Assembly (NCBI GenBank): GCA_036924085.1
Contig: JAVGWX010000002.1
Coordinates: 44,597,666-44,661,665, forward strand
DNA length: 64,000 bases
Source: Ariolimax columbianus
Taxonomy: Eukaryota; Mollusca; Gastropoda; Stylommatophora; Arionidae
Direction: 5' to 3'
The notes beneath the pieces were generated by a model. It was given only the letters and a program-made list of their open reading frames with translations, ran no database searches and was not told the DNA's origin. A program made the translations under genes and the position numbers. Positions 1-62,629 of this stretch are shown one piece after another. The first letter of the stretch is position 1, and each line of letters begins with the position of its first letter.

Positions 1-922
1 ATCAACCAGATGATAGGGTGAAATGGAGAGACATACTTAGACAATCTTACAACCAGTCTCCGGACTGATCAACCAGATGATAGGGTGAAATGGAGAGACA
101 TACTTAGACAATCTTACAACCAGTCTCCGGACTGATCAACCAGATGATAGGGTGAAATGGAGAGACATACTTAGACAATCTTACAACCAGTCTCCGGACT
201 GATCAACCAGATGATAGGGTGAAATGGAGAGACATACTTAGACAATCTTACAACCAGTCTCCGGACTGATCAACCAGATGATAGGGTGAAATGGAGAGAC
301 ATACTTAGACAATCTTACAACCAGTCTCCGGACTGATCAACCAGATGATAGGGTGAAATGGAGAGACATACTTAGACAATCTTACAACCAGTCTCCGGAC
401 TGATCAACCAGATGATAGGGTGAAATGGAGAGACATACTTAGACAATCTTACAACCAGATGATAGGGTGAAATGGAGAGACATACTTAGACAATCTTACA
501 ACCAGTCTCCGGACTGATCAACCAGATGATAGGGTGAAATGGAGAGACATAGTTAGACATTCTTACAACCAGTCTCCGGACTGATCAACCAGATGATAGG
601 GTGAAATGGAGAGACATAGTTAGACATTCTTACAACCAGTCTCCGGACTGATCAACCAGATGATAGGGTGAAATGGAGAGACATAGTTAGACATTCTTAC
701 AACCAGTTTCCGGACTGATCAACCAGATGATAGGGTGAAATGGAGAGACATACTTAGACAATCTTACAACCAGTCTCCGGACTGATCAACCAGATGATAG
801 GGTGAAATGGAGAGACATACTTAGACAATCTTACAACCAGTCTCCGGACTGATCAACCAGATGATAGGGTGAAATGGAGAGACATAGTTAGACATTCTTA
901 CAACCAGTCTCCGTACTGATCA
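1..922 (+). repeat. 67-bp satellite array, LINE-tail derived
   Basis: About 14 head-to-tail copies of a 67-bp unit that begins at the window edge, so its true left end is not seen. Two variants occur (ACTTAGACAATC and AGTTAGACATTC), and one copy near 460 lacks about 20 bp. Read from GATGATAGG the unit gives DDRVKWRDILRQSYNQSPD followed by a stop. The DRVKWR motif is typical of the last residues of some LINE ORF2 proteins, so the unit looks like the end of a LINE. A related array lies at 46.3-47.1 kb. Confidence 0.95.
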
Positions 923-1290
923 ACCAGATGATGATGATGAGAAGATGGACCTTGTTAGAAATAGTCTAAGAATATCAAAATAATGTTTTTTTCCTTTCAG
1001 TCACTGGAGAAATAAGTTATGTTTTCATTTATTATTTGTATCTCATATTCTGGGTTTTGTTTCTAGAACCTTTTTTTCTAACAAAGTTGCCCACTCTACA
1101 TTCAGCAGGCTTTTGGTTTGGGTTAATGGTCTGGGTTTTTCAATGTCATGAGATGTACAATAGTTTACTCTGGAGGATATATGCATGAAAGGCCACAAGG
1201 GATCTTCAACAGGATTAGATACTAACTTTATACTCATGGGGAACTGAGGCGCTAGTCCAGTCAAGAAACAAAACTGATCAGGAAAGTCAC
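923..1290. other. no recognisable gene
   Basis: Leaves the satellite through a short GATGAT run and continues as AT-rich DNA. The reverse strand is open from 1,474 to 1,043 (143 codons). The upstream half of that frame lies in interspersed repeat B and the rest matches no family I know, so I do not call a gene. Confidence 0.5.
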
Positions 1291-6039: not shown

Positions 6040-6310
6040 GATGTTCTCCTCAGGTGCTGGAAGTCGTGGGTTAAAATAACGGCGGAGACCAATTTTTTTC
6101 ACGTGGCTCATCTGGAAAAGTTTCCCCTGATCTCTGAGTAGTAAGATCAGACACCCGTGTGCAATGGAGCGCACGTTAAAAATTCATAAGCAGTTGTAAA
6201 TCGAACAGAGTAGGCCTCTGCTCTGGCAAAATTCAAGTTTAAAAAATCTACCTAAATTATTCGAGGGATTCTCGCCTCACAGAGAATATGTAGCAAAAAA
6301 GGGAACCATG
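6040..6310 (+). mobile_element. possible old SINE
   Basis: A segment with GTGCTGGAAGTCGTGGGTTA (box B-like), a central GATCTCTGAGTAGTAAGATC and ACCCGTGTGCAATGGAGCGC resembles SINE bodies common in mollusc genomes. This is family resemblance only; there is no second copy in the window. Confidence 0.3.
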
Positions 6311-6669
6311 TGGCTATAACATCAGGTCTTGATTATGTGGTTAGCGGAGTGGCATAAATGGCACTTGACACTGCGGGTCTACCTTGCTCTAATTTATGCT
6401 TCCACCACCACCAGTCCCAAAAATGGGCGATCGTATATTCCAGGGGCTACCAATCGTTATGTACTGGGATTGACCTCGCAAGTCACTAGTGAATTTTCAT
6501 CTGCCAACAAATATGAAACAAAGAAAATCTAATGACACAAGTTGACTGAAGATATGAAGCATGTTCAAATGAAACTAAACCCCAGTGGCTGTATTACAAA
6601 CATATAAAAGTTACATCATCTGGTGTGACAGAATTAAATATAGCAATTGTTATGAAGCAAACATGCCAC

Positions 6670-7659
6670 AAGGTTAGTTAGAAAAAGTCGCCATAGGTTC
6701 TTTGAACCACTTGGTCACCGAGGTCATGACGTTTACATCGAGTTGAATCTTTGTTCCTTCAGAAATATTTTAAAGAGTCTGAACAAATGGAAGTCACAAG
6801 GGGACATATTGGGGCTATAGGATGGGTGTGGCAGTACTTCCCACCTTTTCTGTGCACTTTCTGAACAATGTTCGCAACATGTGGACGCTCATTGTCGTAC
6901 AACAGAATCACACCACGCGAAAGTATGCCGGATCGTTTATTCATGATTGCCGTTTGCAGCTTGACTAGTGTGTCATTGTAGCGGATGGTATTGATGTTTA
7001 CGCCAGGCTCTTTAAAGTCTATCAACAAAAGTCCCTCATGGTAAAAAAAAATGCTGTCAGCATAACCTTATCAGCGGAAATGTGCGACTTGAATTTTGTT
7101 TTTGGTTTCAGTGATCTTGGGATGTTTCCATTGCATGCTAGCAGTTTTGGCTGCTTGGCTCAAAATGGTTGCACCACGATTCATCACCTGCCACTATGAG
7201 CAAAAGAAACGAATCACCCTCTTCGTATCGCAGCAAGTGGTTCAAACTCCATCCCATGCGTTCTACCTTATGGTGGTTGGTCAGCAACCGAGGTACCCAT
7301 TGTGAACACCTTCCGATAATCAATTTCTTCCTAAACACCATTTGAACTGTCCCTACCAACACAGCAATTTCCTCTGCTAGCGAACATAAGCTGCGGTAAC
7401 GGTCCAACCGAATTGCTACATCAATTTTGGCGATGACATCTTTTGACGCAACAATATGCGCCTGACCTGGTCTCGGAAGATCTTTCTTTAACTCACATCC
7501 TTCTTTAAACACGTCCTTCTTCACTGTTCTCTTCTACACACTTTTGTCACCATACACTGCCTGCATTCTGTGATGAATGTCAACTGGTTGACATCCTTCA
7601 GTTGTTAGAAACCAAATTACCGCTCGCTGATCAACTCTGGACGGATTCACACTCACCAT
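6670..7659 (-). pseudogene. mariner-family transposase, inactivated
   Basis: A mariner-type DDD transposase on the reverse strand. The start ATG at 7,659 opens MVSVNPSRVDQRAVIWF, followed by the N-terminal DNA-binding region (GCQPVDIHHRMQAVYG). A stop follows GDKSV, then the frame resumes (KKDVFKEGCELKKDLPRPGQ). The first catalytic Asp is in VAGDESWCNHFEP (about 7,170), the second in ILLYDNERPHVAN (about 6,890), and the third in SYSPNMSPCDFHLF (about 6,790), reached only after a frameshift near 6,850. All three acidic residues survive, but stops and frameshifts make it a dead copy. The downstream C-terminus (VTKWFKEPMATF) is degraded. I could not place terminal inverted repeats. Confidence 0.88.
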
Positions 7660-8499: not shown

Positions 8500-8775
8500 A
8501 AATGTATCTGGCTCCGTCCCAACCACAGGGGAGCTTGATGCCTTCAGTGGTGTGCAATGTCGAACTAAAACAATACAGACGAGCCCCTGACGGACTATCT
8601 TCACCATATCCATAATTTCCTCTGTGTTTTGCAATCAGGCAAGGGACACATTTCTCGCAGTTGGACACAATCTGCTCTGTGCAGTGCCAAGTTGTGCACC
8701 CTCAGCACAGTGTAATGCCGAACTGGTACCAGAGCCCTGGCGGACTACCAACACACATGACCTCTTATTATCTTG
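8500..8775 (+). repeat. diverged direct duplication before the 23-bp array
   Basis: Two related blocks (GTGTGCAATGTCGAACTA near 8,550 and CAGTGTAATGCCGAACTG near 8,709), each followed by CCTG(A/G)CGGACTA, suggest an old local duplication. No gene is seen. Confidence 0.4.
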
Positions 8776-10339
8776 TTATCCTCCTACTTATATTACTGTT
8801 TTCCTCCTACTTATATTACTGTTTTCCTCCTACTTATATTACTGTTTTCCTCCTACTTATATTACTGTTTTCCTTCTACTTATATTACTGTTTTCCTCCT
8901 ACTTATATTACTGTTTTCCTTCTACTTATATTACTGTTTTCCTTCTACTTATATTACTGTTTTCCTCCTACTTATATTACTGTTTTCCTTCTACTTATAT
9001 TACTGTTTTCCTTCTACTTATATTACTGTTTTCCTTCTACTTATATTACTGTTTTCCTCCTACTTATATTACTGTTTTCCTTCTACTTATATTACTGTTT
9101 TCCTTCTACTTATATTACTGTTTTTCTCCTACTTATATTACTGTTTTCCTTCTACTTATATTACTGTTTTCCTCCTACTTATATTACTGTTTTCCTCCTA
9201 CTTATATTACTGTTTTCCTTCTACTTATATTACTGTTTTCCTTCTACTTATATTACTGTTTTCCTCCTACTTATATTACTGTTTTCCTTCTACTTATATT
9301 ACTGTTTTCCTCCTACTTATATTACTGTTTTCCTTCTACTTATATTACTGTTTTCCTTCTACTTATATTACTGTTTTCCTTCTACTTATATTACTGTTTT
9401 CCTCCTACTTATATTACTGTTTTCCTTCTACTTATATTACTGTTTTCCTCCTACTTATATTACTGTTTTCCTTCTACTTATATTACTGTTTTCCTTCTAC
9501 TTATATTACTGTTTTCCTTCTACTTATATTACTGTTTTCCTTCTACTTATATTACTGTTTTCCTTCTACTTATATTACTGTTTTCCTTCTACTTATATTA
9601 CTGTTTTCCTTCTACTTATATTACTGTTTTCCTTCTACTTATATTACTGTTTTTCTCCTACTTATATTACTGTTTTCCTTCTACTTATATTACTGTTTTC
9701 CTTCTACTTATATTACTGTTTTTCTCCTACTTATATTACTGTTTTCCTTCTACTTATATTACTGTTTTCCTTCTACTTATATTACTGTTTTCCTTCTACT
9801 TATATTACTGTTTTCCTTCTACTTATATTACTGTTTTCCTTCTACTTATATTACTGTTTTTCTCCTACTTATATTACTGTTTTTCTCCTACTTATATTAC
9901 TGTTTTCCTCCTACTTATATTACTGTTTTCCTCCTACTTATATTACTGTTTTTCTCCTACTTATATTACTGTTTTCCTCCTACTTATATTACTGTTTTCC
10001 TTCTACTTATATTACTGTTTTCCTTCTACTTATATTACTGTTTTCCTTCTACTTATATTACTGTTTTCCTCCTACTTATATTACTGTTTTCCTCCTACTT
10101 ATATTACTGTTTTCCTTCTACTTATATTACTGTTTTCCTCCTACTTATATTACTGTTTTCCTTCTACTTATATTACTGTTTTCCTTCTACTTATATTACT
10201 GTTTTCCTTCTACTTATATTATTGTTTTCCTCCTACTTATATTACTGTTTTCCTTCTACTTATATTACTGTTTTCCTTCTACTTATATTACTGTTTTCCT
10301 TCTACTTATATTATTGTTTTCCTTCTACTTATATTATTG
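8776..10339 (+). repeat. 23-bp tandem array, 68 units
   Basis: The unit is TTTTCCTCCTACTTATATTACTG-like. The span is 1,564 bp, exactly 68 x 23. Sequence variation is confined to a few sites (CCTCC, CCTTC or TCTCC; late copies ATTATTG). As 23 is not a multiple of 3, each frame cycles through all phases, and no + strand phase contains a stop. All three + frames are therefore open for 535-580 codons. These frames are artefacts of the repeat, not genes. Confidence 0.97.
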
Positions 10340-10696
10340 GGGATCAAGATGCTGAGCAGCACATGAGCTGCAGTTGTTAGCGACCCATAGCTGACTGCTA
10401 GCACCAGTGCCAGCGAACCATAACTGCCAAGACCCTTCTACACCTCTACGTGGTGATCCTGGATAACAGACTGCAGCAGGGCAGACTGGCTAAGGAGAAG
10501 GGATCGAAGAAGGAATGCTAACCCGGTACTCAAAAAAAGCTTGCTGAAGTCGGATGTGTTGGACAGAAAGGTGCAAATATCGCAGCCAAGCTGTAAACTA
10601 CGACACACCGCATTCCGTTCTCTGGAGTACATTCTGCTACTTAAGCCCTTTCAGGGTTTGGTAGTTCGAGATTGAGAACAAACGAAGAAGAAGAAG
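10340..10696 (+). mobile_element. SINE A, full-length, inside the 23-bp array
   Basis: Starts GGGATCAAGATGCTGAGCAG and ends GAACAAACGAAGAAGAAGAA. The same about 355-bp sequence recurs at least seven times here, on both strands. It has no tRNA-like promoter boxes, a central core near GAAGTCGGATGTGTTGGACA, and a (GAA)n tail. It splits the 23-bp array, which resumes at 10,697. No clean target duplication is readable because the target is itself repetitive. Confidence 0.93.
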
Positions 10697-10762
10697 ATGA
10701 TATTGTTTTCCTTCTACTTATATTATTGTTTTCCTTCTACTTATATTATTGTTTTCCTTCTA
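10697..10762 (+). repeat. 23-bp array, continuation after SINE A
   Basis: Nearly three further units of the same 23-bp repeat, all with the ATTATTG variant found in the last units left of the SINE. The insertion therefore post-dates the array. Confidence 0.93.
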
Positions 10763-11869: not shown

Positions 11870-14290
11870 CTGATTAAGGTACTGCCAAGGTATTTAAATA
11901 GACGCTAATTATAGACTGTGCTAGTCTGTTCATGGTAGGGTTTTCCAGGAGCAGGCTGGAACAGAACCGTATTGTATTTATTGTGAGACCAAAACAAGAG
12001 CATGCACTTGAAGATACATCCATAGTGGACTGCGTATCCTGTTCTGAGCTAGTACTCAGGGCGCAGTCATCAGCAAATGGGAGGCCCAAGACTGTAGCAT
12101 CTAACACCTTATTGATGTATTCTAGACGCCCCAGATTGAAGAGCTCTGTGCACATCCTGTTGCTGATGTGGACGTCCATAGTAGTATTTTCCACAACCTC
12201 AGAGAACATTGCAACAAACACCAAAGTAAACAGTGGGTGTGAGAGCACCACCCTGCTTCATGCCATCTGTTACTGAGAAGGGCACAGGCAGCTCTCTCTC
12301 ATTCTGGGCCTGTGCCATCATAGAATTGATAGACCATTGTAATGAGTTTTTCTGGACAGCCAAATTTGCCCATAATTTGCCACAGTCAATTTCTGTTCAC
12401 AGTGCCAACGGCCTTAGTCAAGTTCACGACGTTCATGTACAGGTTGCGATGCTGTTCCTGTCACTTTTCCTGAGTTTGTCGTGTTGCGAATATCATATTG
12501 GTTGCTTCTGAAATTTACACTGGGAGTAAGGTACACTCCAGATGGGGCTAGACTTGCAACAGGCAGAAGGGAGATGCCTCTGTGTTTGTCACTGGATTGG
12601 CGGTTGGTCTTTTGTTTGCACAGATGTACAATGTTGGTGTCTTTCATATCCTGTGAACCTTGTTTGGCTTTCCACGTACAATAAAAGAGTGTAGGCAGCT
12701 CTTGAGGAAGCACAAAATCTGATCTTTGTCAGTCAATAGTGCTGTACTGTCAGCACTAAGGACAGGATATGGGTGATGGGACGGAGGGCTGCAGTTCACC
12801 GTTAGGGCACCATAAAACCACCTCAAGTCAGCATATTGTTAAATCTCAACTACCTTGTTATAGAGCCAGGCTACCTGTATGGAACTGAACCTTCATTGCA
12901 CAACCATATGTATGTTGATGATCGCAGTCATTCTGGATGATGAGAAATCACTTTAGAGTAGTCTGAACAAACTGTGCTTTTCATCCAGTAGGATGAATCG
13001 AACCAGTCATTTGTGAGTCACATGTCTCAAACACTCCATTGAGGGGACAATGTTGGCTAGTGGTTAAGTGACTCATTTCACAATCCGAAGGTGCTGGATT
13101 CGCTCCCCAATCACAGTATCGGCCGTTATCCAGGGAAAGCAAACCCTTAGAAAATGCAGGAGAAAGCAGACCCTTAAATAAAGTGCATGCCGAAGCCGGA
13201 GAAAATGCAGGAGAAAGCAGACCCTTAAATAAAGTGCATGCCGAAGCCGGATGCATTAGACCGACAAGCGCAAAATAAAAACAGTGCAATGCACACCTTG
13301 GGGAATACAGAAATAAGGCGAACACCCACACACAAAAATTCCATTGCAGAGAAGCGGACTGCAATCCTTAGGAAGTAGGAAGGCACATCTATCTTCCACG
13401 TATTCAGTGGGGGCTGATTTCTTGTCAGACAACTGTTCAGGTCTCTGCATGTGCCGCACTCTGTTGCTTGGAGATGTGGAACCTATTCACAGGTTTCTTC
13501 CTCTGTTGACGACACATAGACTCAACATGAATATTAAACTTGAAGGGAATGACTACGTGGTCTGTCCAGCACTCAGCACCACACATGACCTAAGTCATAC
13601 ACACATCCCATCTATTGTTCCTTCACGTGATAACATAGTCGATGAGAGACCACTGGTTAGATTGAGGGTATATCCACGATATTTTTTTCTGGGTGTGTAG
13701 ACTAAACATGGTGTTAGTGATGGAGAGATCATGAAAAGCACAGATGGTCAGTAATAGTTGGCCATTATTGTTGCACTTTCCTATGCCATGTTTCCCAAGT
13801 ACTCCTTTCTAGGAATGATGGTCAGAGCCTACTCTGGTATTAAAATTACCAGGGATTGCGGACTTGTTGGACTCGGGAGGTAGACAGAATGAGAGTGTGG
13901 AGATTCTCGTAGAATCTATCCTTTGCCTTTGCAGGGTTGGTCATTGATATATACACTGATCAGCACAGCTCCCACAACTCAATGATAGCTACAGAGACAT
14001 CAGCCTATCATGGACACCATTGGGGAGCACATCAATCTCATGGACCAGAAGGAATCTGACATCAAATTCAATACCATACACATCGTTCTGTGCTGATACG
14101 GCCACTGCAGAAGAATGTGTATGTAGCCACTCCCAGCCTTTAAGCTGGCCCTTGTCAGGTAATCGTGTCTTGCTCAGGGCAGACACCAAGACCACTAGAA
14201 GTAGCATGGGATGCAGATTTTTCCTCAGATTATTCACTAAAGGCCTCCTCCGAGAGACCTCCATATTAATATTGCTTCAGATCGCTCGAC
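11870..14290 (-). pseudogene. LINE (endonuclease + reverse transcriptase), degraded, RT1
   Basis: Read on the reverse strand from 14,290 down. It starts with an endonuclease relic: KTRLPDKGQLK, PNGVHDRLMSL, then GVLGKHGIGKCNNNGQLLL near 13,800 and CWTDHVVIPFKFNIH near 13,560. After an inserted SINE come HPYPVLSADSTALLTDKDQI (about 12,760), DKHRGISLL (about 12,590), and the catalytic PFADDCAL with FGLTIN (about 12,070-11,980), ending in KYLGSTL near 11,890. This is the endonuclease-then-RT order of a LINE ORF2. Many stops and frameshifts are present. The same FADDCAL...GLTIN type occurs at 38.9 kb. The last third is missing. Large + strand frames here are shadows. Confidence 0.9.
13041..13335 (+). 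mobile_element. tRNA-type SINE (family T) inside the LINE
   Basis: The head GGCTAGTGGTTAAGTG (box A-like) and GGATTCGCTCC (box B-like), then a body with GCCGAAGCCGGATGCATTAG, and the end CTTGGGGAATACAGAAATAA. The same head and end occur reversed at 21.45-21.69 kb. A 51-bp internal segment is duplicated in tandem (about 13,149-13,250). It interrupts the LINE between its endonuclease and RT regions. Confidence 0.82.
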
Positions 14291-21444: not shown

Positions 21445-21686
21445 TTTTCCTTTCGCCTTATTTCTCTATTCCCCAAGGCGGGTGTGCGTTACACTGTGGT
21501 TTTTATTTTGCACCTGTCGGCCCAGTGCATCCGACTTCAGCAAGCATTTTATGTAAGGGTCTGCTTCCTCCTGCATTTTCTAAGGGTTTGCTTCCTCGGG
21601 GTAACGGCCGGTGCTGTGATGGGGATCGAACCCAGCACCTTCTGGTTGTGAGCCGTGCCACTTAACCACTAGGCCACGCCGTCCCC
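21445..21686 (-). mobile_element. tRNA-type SINE (family T)
   Basis: The reverse strand starts GGGGACGGCGTGGCCTAGTG GTTAAG (box A), has GGGTTCGATCCCC (box B), then a body with GAAGTCGGATGCACTGGGCC and the end CTTGGGGAATAGAGAAATAA. The tRNA-like 5' end marks a Pol III SINE. It is related to the copy at 13.04 kb. Confidence 0.85.
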
Positions 21687-23867: not shown

Positions 23868-24187
23868 GCCCCATGCACAACCTTATATATTCAGCTTTAT
23901 GCAACGTCAGGGTCAGGAACAATACCACAATCTCTTTTCCATGTAGCTTTCCCTGGGAACAGGCTGTTTTCAAGGCAGCCTGGCTGATGAGATGTGGATC
24001 AATGTAAATGAGATTCCCGTTGTAGTGAGCACCACACAGATGAAGCCAAGCATAGCACAACCGCCTGGAGGACTGCGGTCCACCTAAATCAGAATGTGAG
24101 GAAAGCTACTACAACCCGCCACTTAATGTCCTTTTCAGGGCGCAGAAAAGAGTAAGCTTACTCATTGTGGACATTAAACAACAACAA
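23868..24187 (+). repeat. repeat B copy
   Basis: Runs from GCAACGTCAGGGTCAGGAAC to CTCATTGTGGACATTAAACA. Closely related to 1.3 and 33.0 kb. An antisense frame of 107 codons crosses it and is not a gene. Confidence 0.8.
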
Positions 24188-32885: not shown

Positions 32886-33029
32886 TTAGTTGATAGAAGA
32901 AACGGAAGTGGTGTATTTACCTGGATGTCAAGATATATTTCTTGTGTAAATATGGGTTTAGCGATTCATATCCTCTTCTTCACTCCTCAATCACATGTTC
33001 CAGGTGCAAGAAAACTGAGACAGTCTAGT

Positions 33030-33356
33030 CAGGCACAACATACTGGCCAGGACGTCGCGTCAGGGTCAGGCACAATATACTGACCAAGACCCCTATATCT
33101 CTCTTCCATGTAGTGTTCACTGGAAACATGCTGTTTTTAAGGCATTCTGGCTGGCAAGATGAGGATCGACGTGATCCCCGTAGTGGTAAGCGTCACGCAG
33201 ATGACGCCAAGCACAGCTCAACCGCCTGGGAGACCGCAGTCCAACTCCATCAGCACGCTCGGGATGTGAGGAAAGCTACTACAACCCGCCACTGAACGCC
33301 ATTTGCAGGGCGCACAAAAGAGCAAACTTACTCATTGTGGACATTAAACAACAATA
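33030..33356 (+). repeat. repeat B copy
   Basis: GGCCAGGACGTCGCGTCAGG through GAGGATCGACGTGATCCCCG to CTCATTGTGGACATTAAACA. The least damaged B copy in the window. Confidence 0.8.
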
Positions 33357-37613: not shown

Positions 37614-38995
37614 TAGCTGTCCATCGTTGTCGATGAGGACCGCCGACATCATCCTTGTCACAGATTTCCCTGTTGGGTGTGGGTGCGCATGTGGCTGAAC
37701 AGGCCAATGCGAGCACGAAAACATCTGCTACATATCGGGCACACGAGATTTGTAGAAGGGGATGGTGTTCCCGCTGCTCGGGATTTCCGCGTCTCGCGTC
37801 TGTTCTGGGCTTTCACAACACGGTCATCTTCACCAGCAGCTACACCCGATTTGACTGCGCTTCTCCAGTCAGATCTGTTTTTCGCAAGACATTCCCAGGT
37901 GTCGATGTCTATCTGGTAACTTTTTAGTGAGTCCTTCAGACCGTCTTTAAAACGTTTCTTTGGGCGCCCCCTCTCGCGCCATCCCTCTCTCAGCTCGCCG
38001 TAGAGAAGCTTCTTTGCGAGCCGCTCGTCTGACATACGGACGAGGTGTCCGGCCCATCCTAGTCGTGCTTTTTCTAGCAGTGCATGGATGCTGGGCATGT
38101 TAGCCCTCGAGAGAACCTCGATGTCAGTGACACGATCTTGCCATCGGATGTGGAATATTCACCTCAGGCAACCTGTGTGGAAGTGGTTTAACCTCCTTGC
38201 ATGTCCAGAGTATACAGTCCAGCTTTCGCAAGCGTATAGTAGGGTTGGAATGATGGTTGCACGGTAGACTTTGAGTTTGGTCTTGACGCTGATTCCACGA
38301 CGTGCCCAGACCATCGAGCGCATTCTACCAAAGGCTGTGCTGGCCTTTGCTATTCTGCTTGCCACCTCATCGTCTAGGCTGACAGATCTCGACAGCGTGC
38401 TGCCCAGATATGTGAATCGGCAGAAATAGAGGGGGCTTCACCCTGGGGGCCACTCTTCCCCTTCTCTCTTCTCACCTCACTCTGTTTCATTTGACTCTGT
38501 CCTACAGTCACACCCTTGCACAACTTTCACACGCGCCCTCATGGTAAAGCCCTTCCATTGCACTTTGGTTGGGCTAGCTTCTGAGGGCGCACAAACCTAG
38601 CATAGGTACATACAGATGCACACATGCATCCAAGCACTGGTTTATGCGTCCTGATATCGCCCAATTGACTACGGTCTGGGGTGGAAAATGGCGCGCCTCC
38701 GCCAGTAGAAACTAGCGAGGCAAACATTTAAGCAAAAAAAAAAAAAAAGATATGTGAATTTGTCTACGGCATTCAACGTCTGCCCGCTGGCTGTAGTCTC
38801 TGGTTTTGTGTACGGCATGCCTGGTGCTGGTTGGTACATGACCTCTGTTTTTTTTTGCATTTATGGTCAGACCAAAATTTTCGCATGCAGCAGAGAACTG
38901 GTCCATTCCAACCTGCATGTTCAGTTCTGAGTTGCTCATCAGAGCGCAGTCGTCAGCAAATACAAGAGGAGAGAGAAGGGGAAAAGTCACCCCCG
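37614..38995 (-). pseudogene. LINE RT to C-terminal zinc finger, interrupted by SINE D
   Basis: Reverse strand, from 38,995: VFADDCALMSNSELNMQVGM with FGLTINAKK (catalytic RT box), then KFTYL, the SINE D insertion, YLGSTLSRSVSLDDEVASRI, RRGISVKTKLKVYRATIIPT, LLYACESWTVYS, RWQDRVTDIEVLSRANMPS and RLGWAGHLVRMSDERL. It ends with a classical C2H2 finger, CX2CX12HX3H (CPICSRCFRARIGLFSHMRTH spans about 37,675-37,740). The 3' tail is an (ATT)n-like tract near 37,610. The RT type equals that at 12 kb. The 146-codon C-terminal frame (38,098-37,658) is intact. The 5' part is missing and a frameshift lies near 38,860. Confidence 0.93.
38418..38747 (+). mobile_element. SINE D, full-length, nested in the LINE RT
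   Basis: A 330-bp copy with a poly(A) tail at its right end. It is bounded by a perfect 12-bp duplication AGATATGTGAAT (38,406-38,417 and 38,748-38,759). It interrupts the YLGSTLSR region of the LINE. It is the most complete D copy and has no obvious tRNA boxes. Confidence 0.95.
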
Positions 38996-46129: not shown

Positions 46130-46400
46130 TCGAAACCGTTTGGTAAACACTCAAAGACAAAAATTGAAAGTGATAAAAAAACGAAGATTGAGTTTGCTTG
46201 GACACAATAGTCTTCTACAGAAGATACTAGAGGGCAAGATGCATAAGAAAAGAGGAAGGGTGCAACCAAATCTGAACTTTACATCTCAGACATGCAAATA
46301 TATTAAAATACGACTCTACGCAGAGAGCTGCAGAGGATAGGGTGGAATGAAGAGACATGTTCAGACAATCTTACAATCAGTCTTAGGACTGATCAACCAG
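46130..46400 (+). pseudogene. LINE ORF2 C-terminus entering the 67-bp array
   Basis: Reads KKRRLSLLGHNSLLQKILEG KMHKKRGRVQPNL, the LGH...ILEGKMxGKRGRGRP pattern of the ends of some LINE ORF2 proteins. A frame later AEDRVE-stop-RDMFRQSYNQS gives the DRxxWR terminal motif, with W changed to a stop. This last segment is the first unit of the 67-bp array that follows, so it shows where the satellite came from. Confidence 0.85.
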
Positions 46401-47072
46401 CTGACACGGTCAAATAGAGAGACATGTTCAGACAACCTTACAATCAGTCTTAGGACTGATCAACCAGCTGACACGGTCAAATAGAGAGACATGTTCAGAC
46501 AATCTTACAATCAGTCTTAGGACTGATCAACCAGCTGACACGGTCAAATAGAGAGACATGCTCAGACAATCTTACAATCAGTCTTAGGACTGATCAACCT
46601 GATGACACGGTCAAATAGAGAGACATGCTCAGACAATCTTACAATCAGTCTTAGGACTGATCAACCAGCTGACACGGTCAAATAGAGAGACATGCTCAGA
46701 CAATCTTACAATCAGTCTTAGGACTGATCAACCAGCTGACACGGTCAAATAGAGAGACATGCTCAGACAATCTTACAATCAGTCTTAGGACTGATCAACC
46801 TGATGACACGGTCAAATAGAGAGACATGCTCAGACAATCTTACAATCAGTCTTAGGACTGATCAACCAGCTGACACGGTCAAATAGAGAGACATGTTCAG
46901 ACAATCTTACAATCAGTCTTAGGACTGATCAACCAGCTGACACGGTCAAATAGAGAGACATGCTCAGACAATCTTACAATCAGTCTTAGGACTGATCAAC
47001 CAGCTGACACGGTCAAATAGAGAGACATGCTCAGACAATCTTACAATCAGTCTTAGGACTGATCAACCTGAG
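46322..47072 (+). repeat. 67-bp satellite array, second locus
   Basis: About 11 units of 67 bp, homologous to the array at 1-922 but about 20% different (GCTGACACGGTCAAATAGAG for GATGATAGGGTGAAATGGAG). Each unit has a perfect 7-bp stem, ATCAGTC-TTAG-GACTGAT. A few units carry CCTGATGACACGG. Confidence 0.95.
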
Positions 47073-47454
47073 GATGATTTCTTCATATTTGTTGATAATC
47101 TATATCACCAGGGAAAAATAGCCTAGAGACCAGACCATAAGGTGAAATTCAAGTCTTTTTTTGACATGCTTAAAACATGTATAAACTGCCATTTATTAAG
47201 TGCACACTAATGTTAGATTTTAAAATAAAGTAAAATGAATGAACACTACTATATAAACATTGCATATCTTAAAACATATTTGACCACTGTGTATGGGGAA
47301 TGAAAAATGAATTCTTTTTGATGGTAAACTAACCTTAACTAGTCTCAAATTTGTCTTTTGCAGCTTCTTTCAGCCTTCATAGTTTGGAACAGAGTTAGGA
47401 TCTTGCTCTGAATTTAGGTTTGACCTAATAGCACATCGTCGCTGGATTAAACTT

Positions 47455-50512: not shown

Positions 50513-50818
50513 CACAATAATTGCCAGATCATACTGCCAGCTTTTGTTTTTTAACTCCTGCCAAGGTTTTCCTTTCTTTTCTTTTTCTTTTTGCTCGTGC
50601 CTTTCAGTGTCAGATTATAAAGAGGTTTCTTGATTGGGCCCTAGTATGTGCTTCGTACATGGGGAGCTTTACTGCTTCTGTAATTTCTGCTATCCACTGT
50701 TTGCGTGGTCGCCCCTTGGCAAAGATCTCTCAAATCGTCAAATGGTTTCAGCAGATTCCCCTTACCAGGACAACACACTTTACAGTATAAGGTGAAGTCT
50801 TTGTGCTTGAATTATGTC

Positions 50819-52387
50819 AATATTCTCGCTTTCAATCAAACCCCAAAATACAAAATTAAGTTTAAATGGCAAATTCCTGCAGCCAAACGACAACCCAACC
50901 TATCTGGGAGTCACATTTGATCGGCGCATGACATGGAAAAGTCAGATCGAGAGAAACCGAATGAGAGCCAGAGAAAGAATGGCAATCATGAGGAAACTTG
51001 CTGGCACAAGCTGGGGAGCAGACGAAAGCATACTAAAGAAACTGTACACTGGAAGAGTGAGACCAGTTCTCGAGTATGGAATTGCGGCATGGACAACAGC
51101 AGCAAAGGCGAACTTCGATAAAGTTAGCAAACTTCAAAACCAAGCCATGAGAGTTATAACAGGAGGCATGAAGTCAACGCCAATTGTAGAACTTGAAAAG
51201 ATTACAAAACTGCAATTCATGACCAATAGAAGAGACTGCAGAGCCCAGCTGCAGTCAGAGAAACTCAGAAGACTGACTGACCATCCAATGCACCAGAGAC
51301 TAAACAATTTTGGAAATGGGAAACTAAAGAGGAGAAACTCTGCAGAAATAGCCAAAGCAAAGATGCACGAAGATCCCATAAACGCACTAACAACACCAAA
51401 GCCCATCACTACTGTACGAAAACCTACCTGGAGGCAGGATATATTTCCAGAGGTGGTAGAAAATATACCAGGTATTGGAAATAAAAACTGCCAGACTGAA
51501 AAAGAAAGGAGAGATACTACCCTAAGCTTTATATCGAAAAACTACCCAAGCATGGACTGGACCCATGCATACACCGACGGTTCTGTAACAAACACTACAC
51601 AGAACGGAGGGGCAGGAGCATTCCTGAACCTACCAAATGGCAGAAAAAGAACACTGTCATTCGCTACTGGTAAGCACACAAGCAATTTCAGAGCGGAGGC
51701 AGAGGCACTGAGGGCGGCAGTGGAAGAAATGGTGACACATAAAGAAAATGAAAGCCATACAGTCCTGCTTACAGATGCTCTGGCCGTAGTCACAGCGCTA
51801 AAAAGCGAGAAAAACACTGAGCTTAATGACTTAAGAGCAGTACTCTGTCAACTATGCCAGCAGTCCGCACCAAAAAGGGTAGTGGTACAGTGGGTCCCAT
51901 CACACTGCAACATCCAAGGCATCGAGGAGGCAGACAGACTGACAAAAGAAGGTGCAAGACTACCACAAACAGATACTAGTATGACGTACGAAGAGTCAAA
52001 ACGGCTTATCAAAGCCAGATACATGACCAAATGGGAAACCGAACATACTGGTTACACCAAAAACGATGCCTATTACTAGTTGAACAGAAGAGAGCAGGTC
52101 GTTGTCTTAAGACTTCGCACTGGCCACAATAGACTGAGGTACCACCTATTCAACAAATTGAAGATAGGTGAAACCGACGAATGCCCGTGTGATACCGGGA
52201 AAATGACCGCTGAACATCTGCTGCAGAACTGCCCGACATACGAGGATCAGAGAGAGCAGATGTGGCCATCACCAGTGGAACCACAAGACAAGCTCTATGG
52301 CAGTGTCGACAGCCTCAGGATGACCGCCGCTTTTTTCGAAAAAATAATGGTCACTGTCTGACTGCGTACGAAGAAGAAGAAGAAGAA
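50819..52387 (+). pseudogene. 5'-truncated LINE: RT thumb, RNase H, Cys tail
   Basis: Coding starts inside the RT (IFSLSIKPQNTKLSLNGKF, then NPTYLGVTFDRRMTWKSQI). It passes the thumb (RPVLEYGIAAWT, QNQAMRVITGGMKSTP) into an RNase H domain with Asp in HAYTDGSVTN (about residue 255), Glu in NFRAEAEAL, Asp in VLLTDALAVV, and QWVPSHCNIQGIEEADRLTK. There the usual GNEEADRLAK has changed at two sites. The tail has RTGHNRLRYHLFNKLKIG and the CPCDTGKM...EHLLQNCPTY box. A single in-frame TAG at 52,077 splits the frame where the 62-kb copy has CAG. A 10-bp duplication GAATTATGTC (50,809-50,818 and 52,388-52,397) brackets it, so the ATG at 50,814 is target DNA, not a start codon. Confidence 0.95.
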
Positions 52388-52814
52388 GAATTATGTCTTT
52401 TAGAAATACTTGAAACTAGTGGTAGTTTAATGGAAACATATGCAGAAAGTGACTGGTCATGACATGGGCAGATTTTATTGTATTTGCACACATGTTTTGT
52501 TGGTGTAAAATGCAGTGAAGCACACACAAATCTACTGTGTCAATGTTCATATTAGATAATTAAAATCTGATCTTAAAAATGTCCAAGTTTGATTCAATCA
52601 TTGCTGGAGCCATATCTGTTGATATCCCGTTTAGGTTCACCCACATAAGGTCAAATTAATTTTTTTTAAATTAATCTACTGGAAAATGTATTCCCCTCTT
52701 GTAGGATCTTTAATTGGTTCAGAAGCAAGCAATTCTGCTATACAGTTAAACATACACTGTAGTGATAATATTATGTCGTTTTTAGTTTATGATGATTATT
52801 TGCCTTCTTGCTGC

Positions 52815-58844: not shown

Positions 58845-59335
58845 TCAGGCACAACATACTGATCAGACATGTTAGTCAGGTAAAATATACTGGCCAAGAC
58901 CCACACCTCGATTTTCTCCCTGGAAACGGGCTGTTCTTCTTGGCAGCTTGGATAACGAGGTGGGCTATGGACGTGATCCCAGTAGGGGAGAATCCCAGTC
59001 CACATTGGCTAACGAGGTGGGCTATGGACGTGATCCCAGTAGGGAAGGATCCCAGTCCACTTTGGCTAACGAGTTGGGTTATGGACGTGAACCCAGTAGG
59101 GGAGGATCCCAGTCCACCTTGGCTAACGAGTTGGGCTATGGACGTGATCCCAGTAGGGGAGGATCCCAGTCGACTTTGGCTAACGAGTTGGGTTATGGAC
59201 GTGAACCCAGTAGGGGAGGATCCCAGTCCACCTTGATTAGCACACTTGGGAAGTGGCGAAAGCTACTGCAACCGCCACTTATCTCCCTTTTCAGGTCTCA
59301 AAAGAGTAAACTTACTCATTGTGGGCATTCACCAA
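58845..59335 (+). repeat. repeat B with internal 57-bp expansion
   Basis: B ends are clear: GGTCAGGCACAACATACTGA and AAACTTACTCATTGTGGGCA. In between, 58,950-59,235 holds five units of 57 bp, each with GGCTAACGAG(G/T)TGGG(C/T)TATGG. These correspond to the B block GGCTGATGAGATGTGGATCG plus part of the CAGTCCACCTT block. The 57-bp length keeps a frame open (LANELGYGREPSRGGSQST). This is not a gene. Confidence 0.88.
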
Positions 59336-61686: not shown

Positions 61687-61699
61687 GGCCGTTTAGTTT

Positions 61700-62279
61700 C
61701 TTCTTCTTTCTTCTTCGTCGTACGCAGTCAGACAGTAACCATTATTTTTTCGAAAAAAGCGGTGGTCATCCTGAGGCTGTCGCCACTGCCATAGAGCTTG
61801 TCTTGCAGTTCCACTGGTGATGGCCACATCTGCTCTCTCTGATCCTCGTATGTCGGGAAGTTCTGCAGCAGATGTTCAGCGGTCATTTTACCGGTACCGC
61901 ACGGGCATTCGTCGGTACCACCTATCTTCAATTTGTTGAATAGGTGGTACCTCAGTCTATTGTGGCCAGTGCGAAGTCTGAAGACAACGACCTGCTCTCT
62001 TCGGTTCAACTGGTAATAGGCATCGTTTTTGGTGTAACCAGTATGTTCGGTTTCCCATTTGGTCATGTATCTGGCTTTGATAAGCCGTTTTGACTCTTCG
62101 TACGTCATACTAGTATCTGTTTGTGGTAGTCTTGCACCTTCTTTTGCCAGTCTGTCTGCCTCCTCGTTGCCTTGGATGTTGCAGTGTGATGGGACCCACT
62201 GTACCACTACCCTTTTTGGTGTTTTTCTGGCTTTTTAGCGCTGTGACTACGGCGAGAGCATCTGTAAGCAGGACTATAT
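61700..62279 (-). pseudogene. 5'-truncated LINE: RNase H end and Cys tail
   Basis: Reverse strand, bounded by a perfect 13-bp duplication GGCCGTTTAGTTT (61,687-61,699 and 62,280-62,292). It encodes LLTDALAVVTALKSQKNT, then after a deletion VQWVPSHCNIQGNEEADRLA KEGA (RNase H, intact GNEEAD), KNDAYYQLNRREQVVVFRL, RTGHNRLRYHLFNKLKIG and CPCGTGKM. A 53-bp gap relative to the 51.8-kb copy, at 62,225, shifts the frame. The tail is an interrupted GAA tract. It is the best-preserved C-terminus of this LINE here: 159 codons open. Confidence 0.95.
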
Positions 62280-62629
62280 GGCCGTTTAGTTTGAAAAGCA
62301 TTGGTTCAAACCCTAGCAGGGACAACCTTATGTCCACCCAGTTTAGCCTATCAAAGCAGTGCAACGATAATCTTACATTGTTTAAATGAACAACATACAC
62401 CTGGCGATCTGCGAGTCTTCTCTAGTGTCATACAGTTTACCCCTCAATCTGGTGACATGGACCATGCTGTCACACTGCATCTCTCGTGTAGCCGACATAC
62501 CTTGAGAGGAAGTTAAATTGTTACTGTACTAGTTATGACAAGTGTTAGCTATGGTGCAGGGAAAGGATAGGTTGTTTAAAAACAAAACAACATCCGGTCA
62601 TTCACTTCGTCTTGTAATTATCATGTCAG

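What the first reader, a model, noticed from the sequence alone, without database searches (positions are those of the whole stretch)
46130..47072. 67-bp satellite born from a LINE 3' end, with the parent still attached
The LINE C-terminus (LGH...ILEGKM...KRGR) runs straight into the 67-bp array, and the first unit is the LINE's own terminal DRVxWR...RQSYNQS segment. A sister array, about 20% different, opens the window. The satellite therefore has an identifiable origin, and it expanded at two loci or was moved with its LINE.
Basis: partly seen in the sequence, partly recalled or inferred. Interest (0 to 1): 0.75.

Follow-up and report, generated by a model that had tools for sequence, protein, structure and literature searches.

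The report
Tandem arrays born from LINE ends
A common jumping gene in this animal genome often ends in a string of copies of its own last 67 letters, and copies with one unit and copies with many survive side by side, so the birth of a tandem repeat can be followed in many parallel cases.

Summary
Window 46142-46331 is a decayed LINE ORF end. It runs into unit 1 (46332-46398, the LINE's own C-terminus), ten more 67-bp units (46399-47068) and a GAT-rich tail. A second array (1-925, 83% alike) ends in the same kind of tail.

The whole genome (2.29 Gb) could be searched. Of 21 array loci with visible 5' sides (20 fetched of about 36, plus this one), 20 have LINE sequence upstream. Of 40 LINE copies picked by sequence upstream of the unit, 25 carry two or more units, 14 carry one (one of them split), and 1 lost its end. 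A foreign relative's ORF ends at the matching residues, so the unit is LINE sequence.

Units cluster by locus, outer units diverge more than inner ones, a few arrays show multi-unit periods, and old insertions hold young arrays. Arrays therefore turn over in place. The likely seed is a near-repeat, CAGAGGAT and CAGATGAT, 67 bp apart in one-unit copies.

Correction: this array's diagnostic changes match an array on another contig, not the attached LINE's own unit. LINE-derived satellites are known; the dispersed, family-wide form looks like a new variant.

The parts
46142..46331 (+). decayed 3' part of a LINE ORF (C-terminal LGH / ILEGK / KRGR segment), 5'-truncated
   Evidence: 190 bp aligned, score 110 vs null maximum 19; frames; its family's C-terminal consensus hits RVT_1 proteins
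46332..46398 (+). unit 1: the LINE's own last 67 bp (family reading AEDRVKWRDM.RQ.YNQS; here with a stop at W), hairpin-like CAGTC-NNNN-GACTG, ATCAACC
   Evidence: ORF end of P0002
46399..47068 (+). ten further 67-bp units, 98% alike
47069..47078 (+). LINE 3' tail remnant TGAGGATGAT
   Evidence: GATGAT follows the last unit in 26 of 33 body-selected copies whose end is visible and in 11 of 22 of the other loci and window arrays
1..925 (+). sister array, 14 units (one shortened to 47 bp), open at the window edge
926..940 (+). LINE 3' tail AGATGATGATGATGA closing array 1

Best explanation
The array is a minisatellite made from the 3' end of a non-LTR retrotransposon family (LINE). SHOWN: the unit is the element's last 67 bp, covering the ORF C-terminus, the stop and a few bases before a (GAT)n tail. 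One-unit and many-unit copies coexist in one family, and the arrays sit between the LINE body and the tail. SHOWN statistically: arrays are homogenised locus by locus and, in old insertions, are younger than the insertions that carry them, so they expand and turn over in the chromosome. INFERRED: the first duplication comes from slippage or unequal exchange between two near-identical 8-bp words that bracket the unit, CAGAGGAT in the ORF and CAGATGAT at the start of the tail, 67 bp apart. Some source elements already carried two or more units and passed them on by retrotransposition; the variant shared by this array and L021 argues for that.
For: Origin. Among 40 body-selected copies: 14 with one unit (L062's split unit counted as one), 25 with two or more, 1 with none. 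Seed words exactly 67 bp apart in 8 of the 9 one-unit copies where the script found both, 70 bp in the ninth (13 examined). Locus clustering: the nearest unit is of the same locus for 105.5 of 154 units of body-selected copies (0.685 vs 0.044 shuffled) and 151.2 of 201 units of the other loci (0.752 vs 0.050); the unit tree needs 50 label changes vs 159 shuffled (200 units of 20 loci). Edges: unit 1 is farther from the inner consensus than inner units in 23 of 28 arrays, the last unit in 14 of 21. Age: pairwise divergence within arrays is below twice the body divergence in 35 of 35 loci and below the body divergence itself in 27; medians within arrays and for bodies are 0.06 and 0.17 in the old set, 0.06 and 0.076 in the body-selected set. 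Multi-unit periods: lag 4 in L043 and L052, lag 3 in L080, lag 2 in L035 and L039, of 20 arrays tested, p 0.04 or lower, uncorrected. Only 1 of 21 arrays begins without LINE body, where about 8.8 are expected if 5' truncation often fell inside RNA-borne arrays of today's length.
Against: Having arrays in 25 of 40 copies is a high yield for chance slippage, and points to a seed made at or before insertion. The 8-bp match itself is not rare: 13% of shuffled 250-bp stretches hold one, and the LINE end holds a second such match about 120 bp further upstream that is not the array's edge. W2 and L021 share array variants that W2's own unit 1 lacks, so pure in-place birth from the attached LINE fails for this very array. 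Of 119 rare unit-1 variants in 36 loci, 25 are shared by half or more of the locus's own later units, 25 by some, and 69 by none. Most arrays show no multi-unit period; this window's array 2 does not (p 0.54). Body divergence was measured against one majority reference, so it includes subfamily differences. The truncation test used the 21 units of L034 as one array though they lie in runs of 4 and 17, and it weakens if RT runs are longer (P 0.02 at twice the mean run length, 0.10 at three times). No target-site duplication or empty site was established.
Confidence: 0.6

Rival explanations
1. The arrays are made during insertion: while copying the LINE RNA from its 3' end, reverse transcriptase slips or jumps from CAGAGGAT back to the CAGATGAT tail and copies the last 67 nt again, each jump adding a unit.
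For: Head-to-tail order with the tail only at the end; tail-like AGATGAT at unit junctions in at least one later unit at 10 of 47 loci vs 2 of 57 first units; arrays in 25 of 40 fairly young copies; the state is not clustered on the body tree (11 changes vs 12.2 shuffled).
Against: Arrays are much younger than old insertions; diverged edges and some multi-unit periods; few arrays lack LINE body. It may still explain the first extra unit.
Confidence: 0.2
2. The array is a standing part of the element: source LINEs carry several 3' monomers that are copied as they are, like the 5' monomers of mouse L1 (recalled).
For: W2 and L021 share array variants though their bodies are 74% identical; L043, L049 and L050 share a body clade, and L043 and L050 also share 57-bp units.
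Against: 14 of 40 copies have one unit, and the state is not clustered on the body tree; strong per-locus clustering; arrays rarely truncated inside. L043 and L050 may be one duplicated insertion, since the first bases after their tails match.
Confidence: 0.15
3. An unrelated satellite into which LINEs inserted, or which captured a LINE end.
For: One of 21 arrays (L027) has only about 6 bp of LINE body.
Against: The unit codes the LINE C-terminus, matching the ORF end of P0002; 14 of 40 copies have a single unit.
Confidence: 0.02
4. Units are exchanged between LINE ends of different loci by ectopic gene conversion.
For: The W2-L021 shared unit variant with poorly related bodies and no clear flank similarity.
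Against: Most units are nearest to units of their own locus. One clear pair only, and L021 was found because it best matches the W2 unit.
Confidence: 0.1

Closest known systems
Common cetacean satellite from the L1 3' end; chicken HinfI from CR1; 18HT from HeT-A (passages of review PMC9659126)
   Same: Tandem unit taken from the 3' part of a LINE
   Different: Those are described as satellite DNAs; here short arrays (longest unbroken one read 17 units) sit at the ends of many dispersed LINE copies and turn over one by one
Gmr9/GmOgre minisatellites of soybean (abstract of PMC3305785)
   Same: Variable tandem repeats between the coding region and the 3' terminus of a retrotransposon family, most of them still attached to it
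   Different: LTR element with five interleaved minisatellite families; here a LINE, one 67-bp unit overlapping the ORF end, and one-unit copies preserved
Haber-Louis model of minisatellite birth from 5-10 bp flanking repeats (as described in passages of PMC6947457)
   Same: 8-bp near-repeats bracket the 67-bp unit; later growth by slippage or unequal exchange
   Different: Here the same birth seems to recur in many copies of one element
Mouse L1 5' UTR monomers (recalled)
   Same: Variable number of tandem monomers at one end of a LINE
   Different: 5' end with promoter function; here the 3' end, no function shown

Membership tests
Non-LTR retrotransposon (LINE) | Reverse transcriptase upstream of the C-terminal segment | tested here: met
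   14 of 23 proteins found with the C-terminal consensus are listed with PF00078, and all five scanned have RVT_1; P0012 matches LINE-1 ORF2p and R2 structures; locus L081/L045 holds part of the RT in tblastn
Non-LTR retrotransposon (LINE) | 5'-truncated copies with a constant 3' end | tested here: met
   Aligned bodies span 59 to 1062 bp at 20 array loci; in four (L024, L029, L034, L040) the alignment stops short of unit 1, as with internal deletions. GATGAT tail in 26 of 33 body-selected copies with a visible end and 11 of 22 other arrays
Non-LTR retrotransposon (LINE) | Target-site duplications | tested here: inconclusive
   Best candidate at the window locus is 6 bp, p 0.77; none of 10 bp or more at two younger loci
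RTE/BovB-like clade | RT phylogeny and endonuclease | not tested
   Resemblance of the C-terminus to BovB is recalled only; no full-length copy was obtained
LINE-3'-derived satellite | Unit homologous to the LINE 3' end | tested here: met
LINE-3'-derived satellite | Long (many kb) arrays | tested here: inconclusive
   Longest unbroken array among 62 scanned loci has 17 units, about 1.1 kb; six arrays run past the fetched end, and the genome was not searched for longer ones
Minisatellite born from short direct repeats (Haber-Louis) | 5-10 bp direct repeats flanking the unit before duplication | tested here: met
   CAGAGGAT/CAGATGAT (7 of 8 bases) 67 bp apart in 8 of 9 measurable one-unit copies of 13 examined; a match of this kind is expected by chance in 13% of such stretches

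The most novel reading that the evidence does not exclude
The repeats are heritable 3' monomers of the LINE: each unit repeats the ORF stop, a hairpin-like CAGTC-NNNN-GACTG and a tail-like word, so an array would give the reverse transcriptase several entry sites. Unit number would be a trait of the element under selection, gained in the chromosome and passed on through RNA.
Probability: 0.12. Interest if true: 0.75.

Novelty: new variant of a known kind. Interest (0 to 1): 0.52.

Why it matters
How satellites start is usually guessed from finished arrays. Here one element offers many natural replicates in one genome, from the one-unit state through 2, 3 and 4 units to 17 in a row, each with a datable insertion next to it. 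Birth rate, growth steps, edge decay and inheritance through RNA could be measured directly. If unit number affects retrotransposition, it would be a 3' counterpart of the monomers known at the 5' end of mouse L1 (recalled).

Tried and rejected
Chance resemblance of the upstream stretch to a LINE: rejected. LINE inserted into a pre-existing satellite: rejected (one-unit copies). RNA hairpin as a proven functional element: not supported. The stem is 93% conserved, the loop 79%, the rest of the unit 91%; the named pairs form in 91% of cells against 4-39% for slid partners, as expected for a stem read off the consensus, but double changes are no more frequent than with slid partners (7 against 7 to 25 in 367 units). 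Of three units folded, two are no better than shuffles and the window's array-2 unit has z -1.67. Target-site duplications: nothing significant. A first protein search with the decayed window reading gave no hit; the family consensus did. Pfam and PDB searches with the C-terminus alone gave nothing convincing; a weak pairwise match to another LINE end in the window (E 0.006) fits. Viral contigs: no exact match to a 21-base pattern. One paper search was rejected as malformed; ten ran. By title and start of abstract none listed a LINE family with this 3' array; two of the ten returned nothing, and Repbase and most subscription papers are not in that library.

Rows dropped or recounted: L062 (one unit split by an insertion) was counted as one unit; L063 has none; array 1 (W1) was left out of the 5'-side test because its left side is outside the window, while its first unit in the window was treated as a unit 1; units not covering profile positions 8 to 60 were left out of the unit alignment (367 units of 59 loci kept); L043 was left out of the last-unit test with the six cut arrays; one search used loci with 4 or more units and 90 or more aligned body bases (35). 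Corrected on checking: the 21 units of L034 are runs of 4 and 17, and L043's 11 units end inside the fetched stretch.

Full report
What is there. The window lies in a 2.29 Gb genome in 401 contigs, at C2:44597666-44661665. At 46142-46331 lies a decayed, 5'-truncated LINE ORF end: 190 aligned bases, score 110, against at most 19 for 105 random segments. It runs without a break into unit 1 (46332-46398), ten further 67-bp units (46399-47068) and TGAGGATGAT. A second array fills 1-925 and ends in AGATGATGATGATGA. The two arrays are each 98% alike inside and 83% alike between them.

The unit is LINE sequence. A DNA search with one unit of array 2 gave 174 matches, a lower bound; the listed ones fall at 36 places by my grouping. 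I fetched 20 of these, the best-scoring ones beside the window's own, with about 6 to 7 kb of 5' side. With array 2 itself, 20 of 21 have LINE sequence 5' of the array, each scoring above the highest of 105 random segments (L022 and L031 only just); in four the alignment stops short of unit 1, and L027 has only about 6 bp. The majority sequence of eleven of these LINE ends reads ...CYRRMERVSWTERRSNDNVLTEVGAQRQILKIIQKRRLSWLGHNMRHESLLQKILEGKIQGKRGPGRPRLTFTSQACRDIKVRTYAEMKRAAEDRVKWRDMLRQPYNQS-stop. Its C-terminal part finds 23 proteins at E up to 1e-3, the best at 65% identity; 14 of the 23 are listed with an RT domain. P0001, P0002, P0005, P0012 and P0018 were scanned and all have RVT_1. P0002 ends ...RAAEIREGWRDMVHQLNNQS, so the ORF naturally stops where the unit's ORF part stops.

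One-unit and many-unit copies. To avoid picking arrays, I searched with 137 bp lying 5' of the unit (40 scored of 3,580 first-look candidates) and fetched all 40 ends. A profile of the unit finds 0 units in 1, one unit in 14 (L062, split by an insertion, included), and two or more in 25. The 25 are: 2 (3 copies), 3 (3), 4 (4), 5 (2), 6 (3), 8 (1), 9 (2) and 11 (7, of which 6 run off the fetched end). GATGAT follows the last unit in 26 of the 33 whose end is visible, and in 11 of the 22 other arrays. In one-unit copies the ORF word CAGAGGAT and the tail start CAGATGAT lie 67 bp apart in 8 of the 9 cases the script could measure and 70 bp in the other; 4 of the 13 examined were not measurable. 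Such a match is not rare by itself: 13% of shuffled 250-bp stretches hold one, and the real stretch holds a second one upstream.

Turnover in the chromosome. Units resemble units of their own locus: nearest neighbour in the same locus for 105.5 of 154 (0.685, shuffled 0.044) in the body-selected set and 151.2 of 201 (0.752, shuffled 0.050) in the others. In a tree of 200 units from 20 loci the labels need 50 changes against 159 shuffled, though with 67 columns many forks are open. Unit 1 is farther from the inner consensus than inner units are in 23 of 28 arrays (p 2e-5), and the last unit in 14 of 21 (p 0.007). Of 20 arrays tested, L043 (p 0.006) and L052 (0 of 500) show a four-unit period, L080 (0.03) a three-unit one and L035 (0.01) and L039 (0.04) a two-unit one, uncorrected; L034 and L068 also reach low p, with their smallest or tied smallest distance at lag 1; the rest, the window's two arrays among them, show none. 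Divergence within arrays does not follow body divergence (rho 0.04, 35 loci), is below twice the body divergence in all 35 and below it in 27; medians are 0.06 within arrays and 0.17 for bodies in the old set, 0.06 and 0.076 in the body-selected set. The age gap is thus clear for old insertions and small for young ones. These are the marks of unequal exchange or slippage in place. The body divergence contains subfamily differences, so the ages are upper bounds.

Seed and inheritance. One-unit and multi-unit states are not clustered on the body tree (11 changes, 12.2 shuffled; the tree is poorly resolved), so gain or loss seems to recur. If arrays of today's length had been copied from RNA with ordinary 5' truncation, about 8.8 of 21 arrays should lack LINE body; one does (P 2e-4, weakening to 0.02 and 0.10 if RT runs are two and three times longer; L034's two runs were taken as one). 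Against a purely local origin stands the window's own array. Unit 1 differs from the array consensus at 9 sites, 8 of them in the first 20 bp, and the array's changes at columns 7, 9 and 18 recur in the array of L021 (C4:31.807 Mb), whose body is 74% identical (mean of all pairs 79%) and whose flank shows no clear similarity; the two arrays form one supported clade. So some arrays were inherited from an array-bearing source, or exchanged. L051 and L052, with nearly identical bodies, have 4 and at least 11 units, which shows how fast the number changes. Junction words are tail-like (AGATGAT) in at least one later unit at 10 of 47 loci and in 2 of 57 first units (p 0.006), as expected if units were joined at the tail.

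What is not shown. No target-site duplication was found, no full-length copy was obtained, and the clade is open; a BovB/RTE-like C-terminus is recalled only. The hairpin CAGTC-NNNN-GACTG is in the consensus, but pair counts give no covariation. The left side of array 1 was not reached, since the tool did not complete (and repeats). Unit number does not rise with body divergence in the body-selected set (rho -0.20, p 0.22, 39 copies).

Known kinds. Satellites from LINE 3' ends are known (cetacean L1, chicken CR1, HeT-A; passages of PMC9659126). Soybean Gmr9/GmOgre carries minisatellites between coding region and LTR in its family (abstract of PMC3305785). The birth of minisatellites between 5-10 bp repeats is the Haber-Louis model (passages of PMC6947457). 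What differs is a dispersed LINE family in which the unit overlaps the ORF end and the one-unit state survives beside arrays of many sizes. Ten paper searches, seen as listings, showed no such case; Repbase and most subscription papers were not searched.

Verdict. Observation confirmed; origin from the LINE end strongly supported; 'satellite', 'two loci' and 'parent attached' need correction. I rate it a new variant of a known kind.

Noticed in passing
58947-59235: 57-bp array (5.1 copies) inside an interspersed repeat; TRF lists no array of it in its related stretches at 1295-1617, 23917-24184 and 33028-33354, one of which holds a weak single match to the unit: perhaps a second array born inside a transposable element.
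   Followed up: partly
13149-13251: 51-bp perfect duplication inside an interspersed repeat (tRNA-like SINE by eye) that holds the unit once in its copy at 21452-21686 on the minus strand.
   Followed up: partly
8774-10762: A 23-bp array of about 68 copies is interrupted by a roughly 360-bp interspersed repeat (10340-10697) that has several other copies in the window; the array resumes at 10701.
   Followed up: no
399-512: One unit of array 1 is 47 bp, a 20-bp deletion between two CAACCAG words within the unit.
   Followed up: no
37661-38158: Minus-strand ORF end of another LINE with a similar GH/RGRP C-terminal pattern followed by a C2H2 zinc finger match below Pfam's cut-off.
   Followed up: no
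50811-52390 and 61698-62282: Two 95-97% identical, oppositely oriented stretches of an RNase H-bearing element, a candidate young LINE family.
   Followed up: no
L043 and L050: The first 25 or so bases after the tail match, but there are 11 and 4 units: one insertion duplicated, or two insertions into one repeat.
   Followed up: partly
L029 near 6307-6690: The RT part of the LINE seems joined directly to the array, the C-terminal part being deleted.
   Followed up: no
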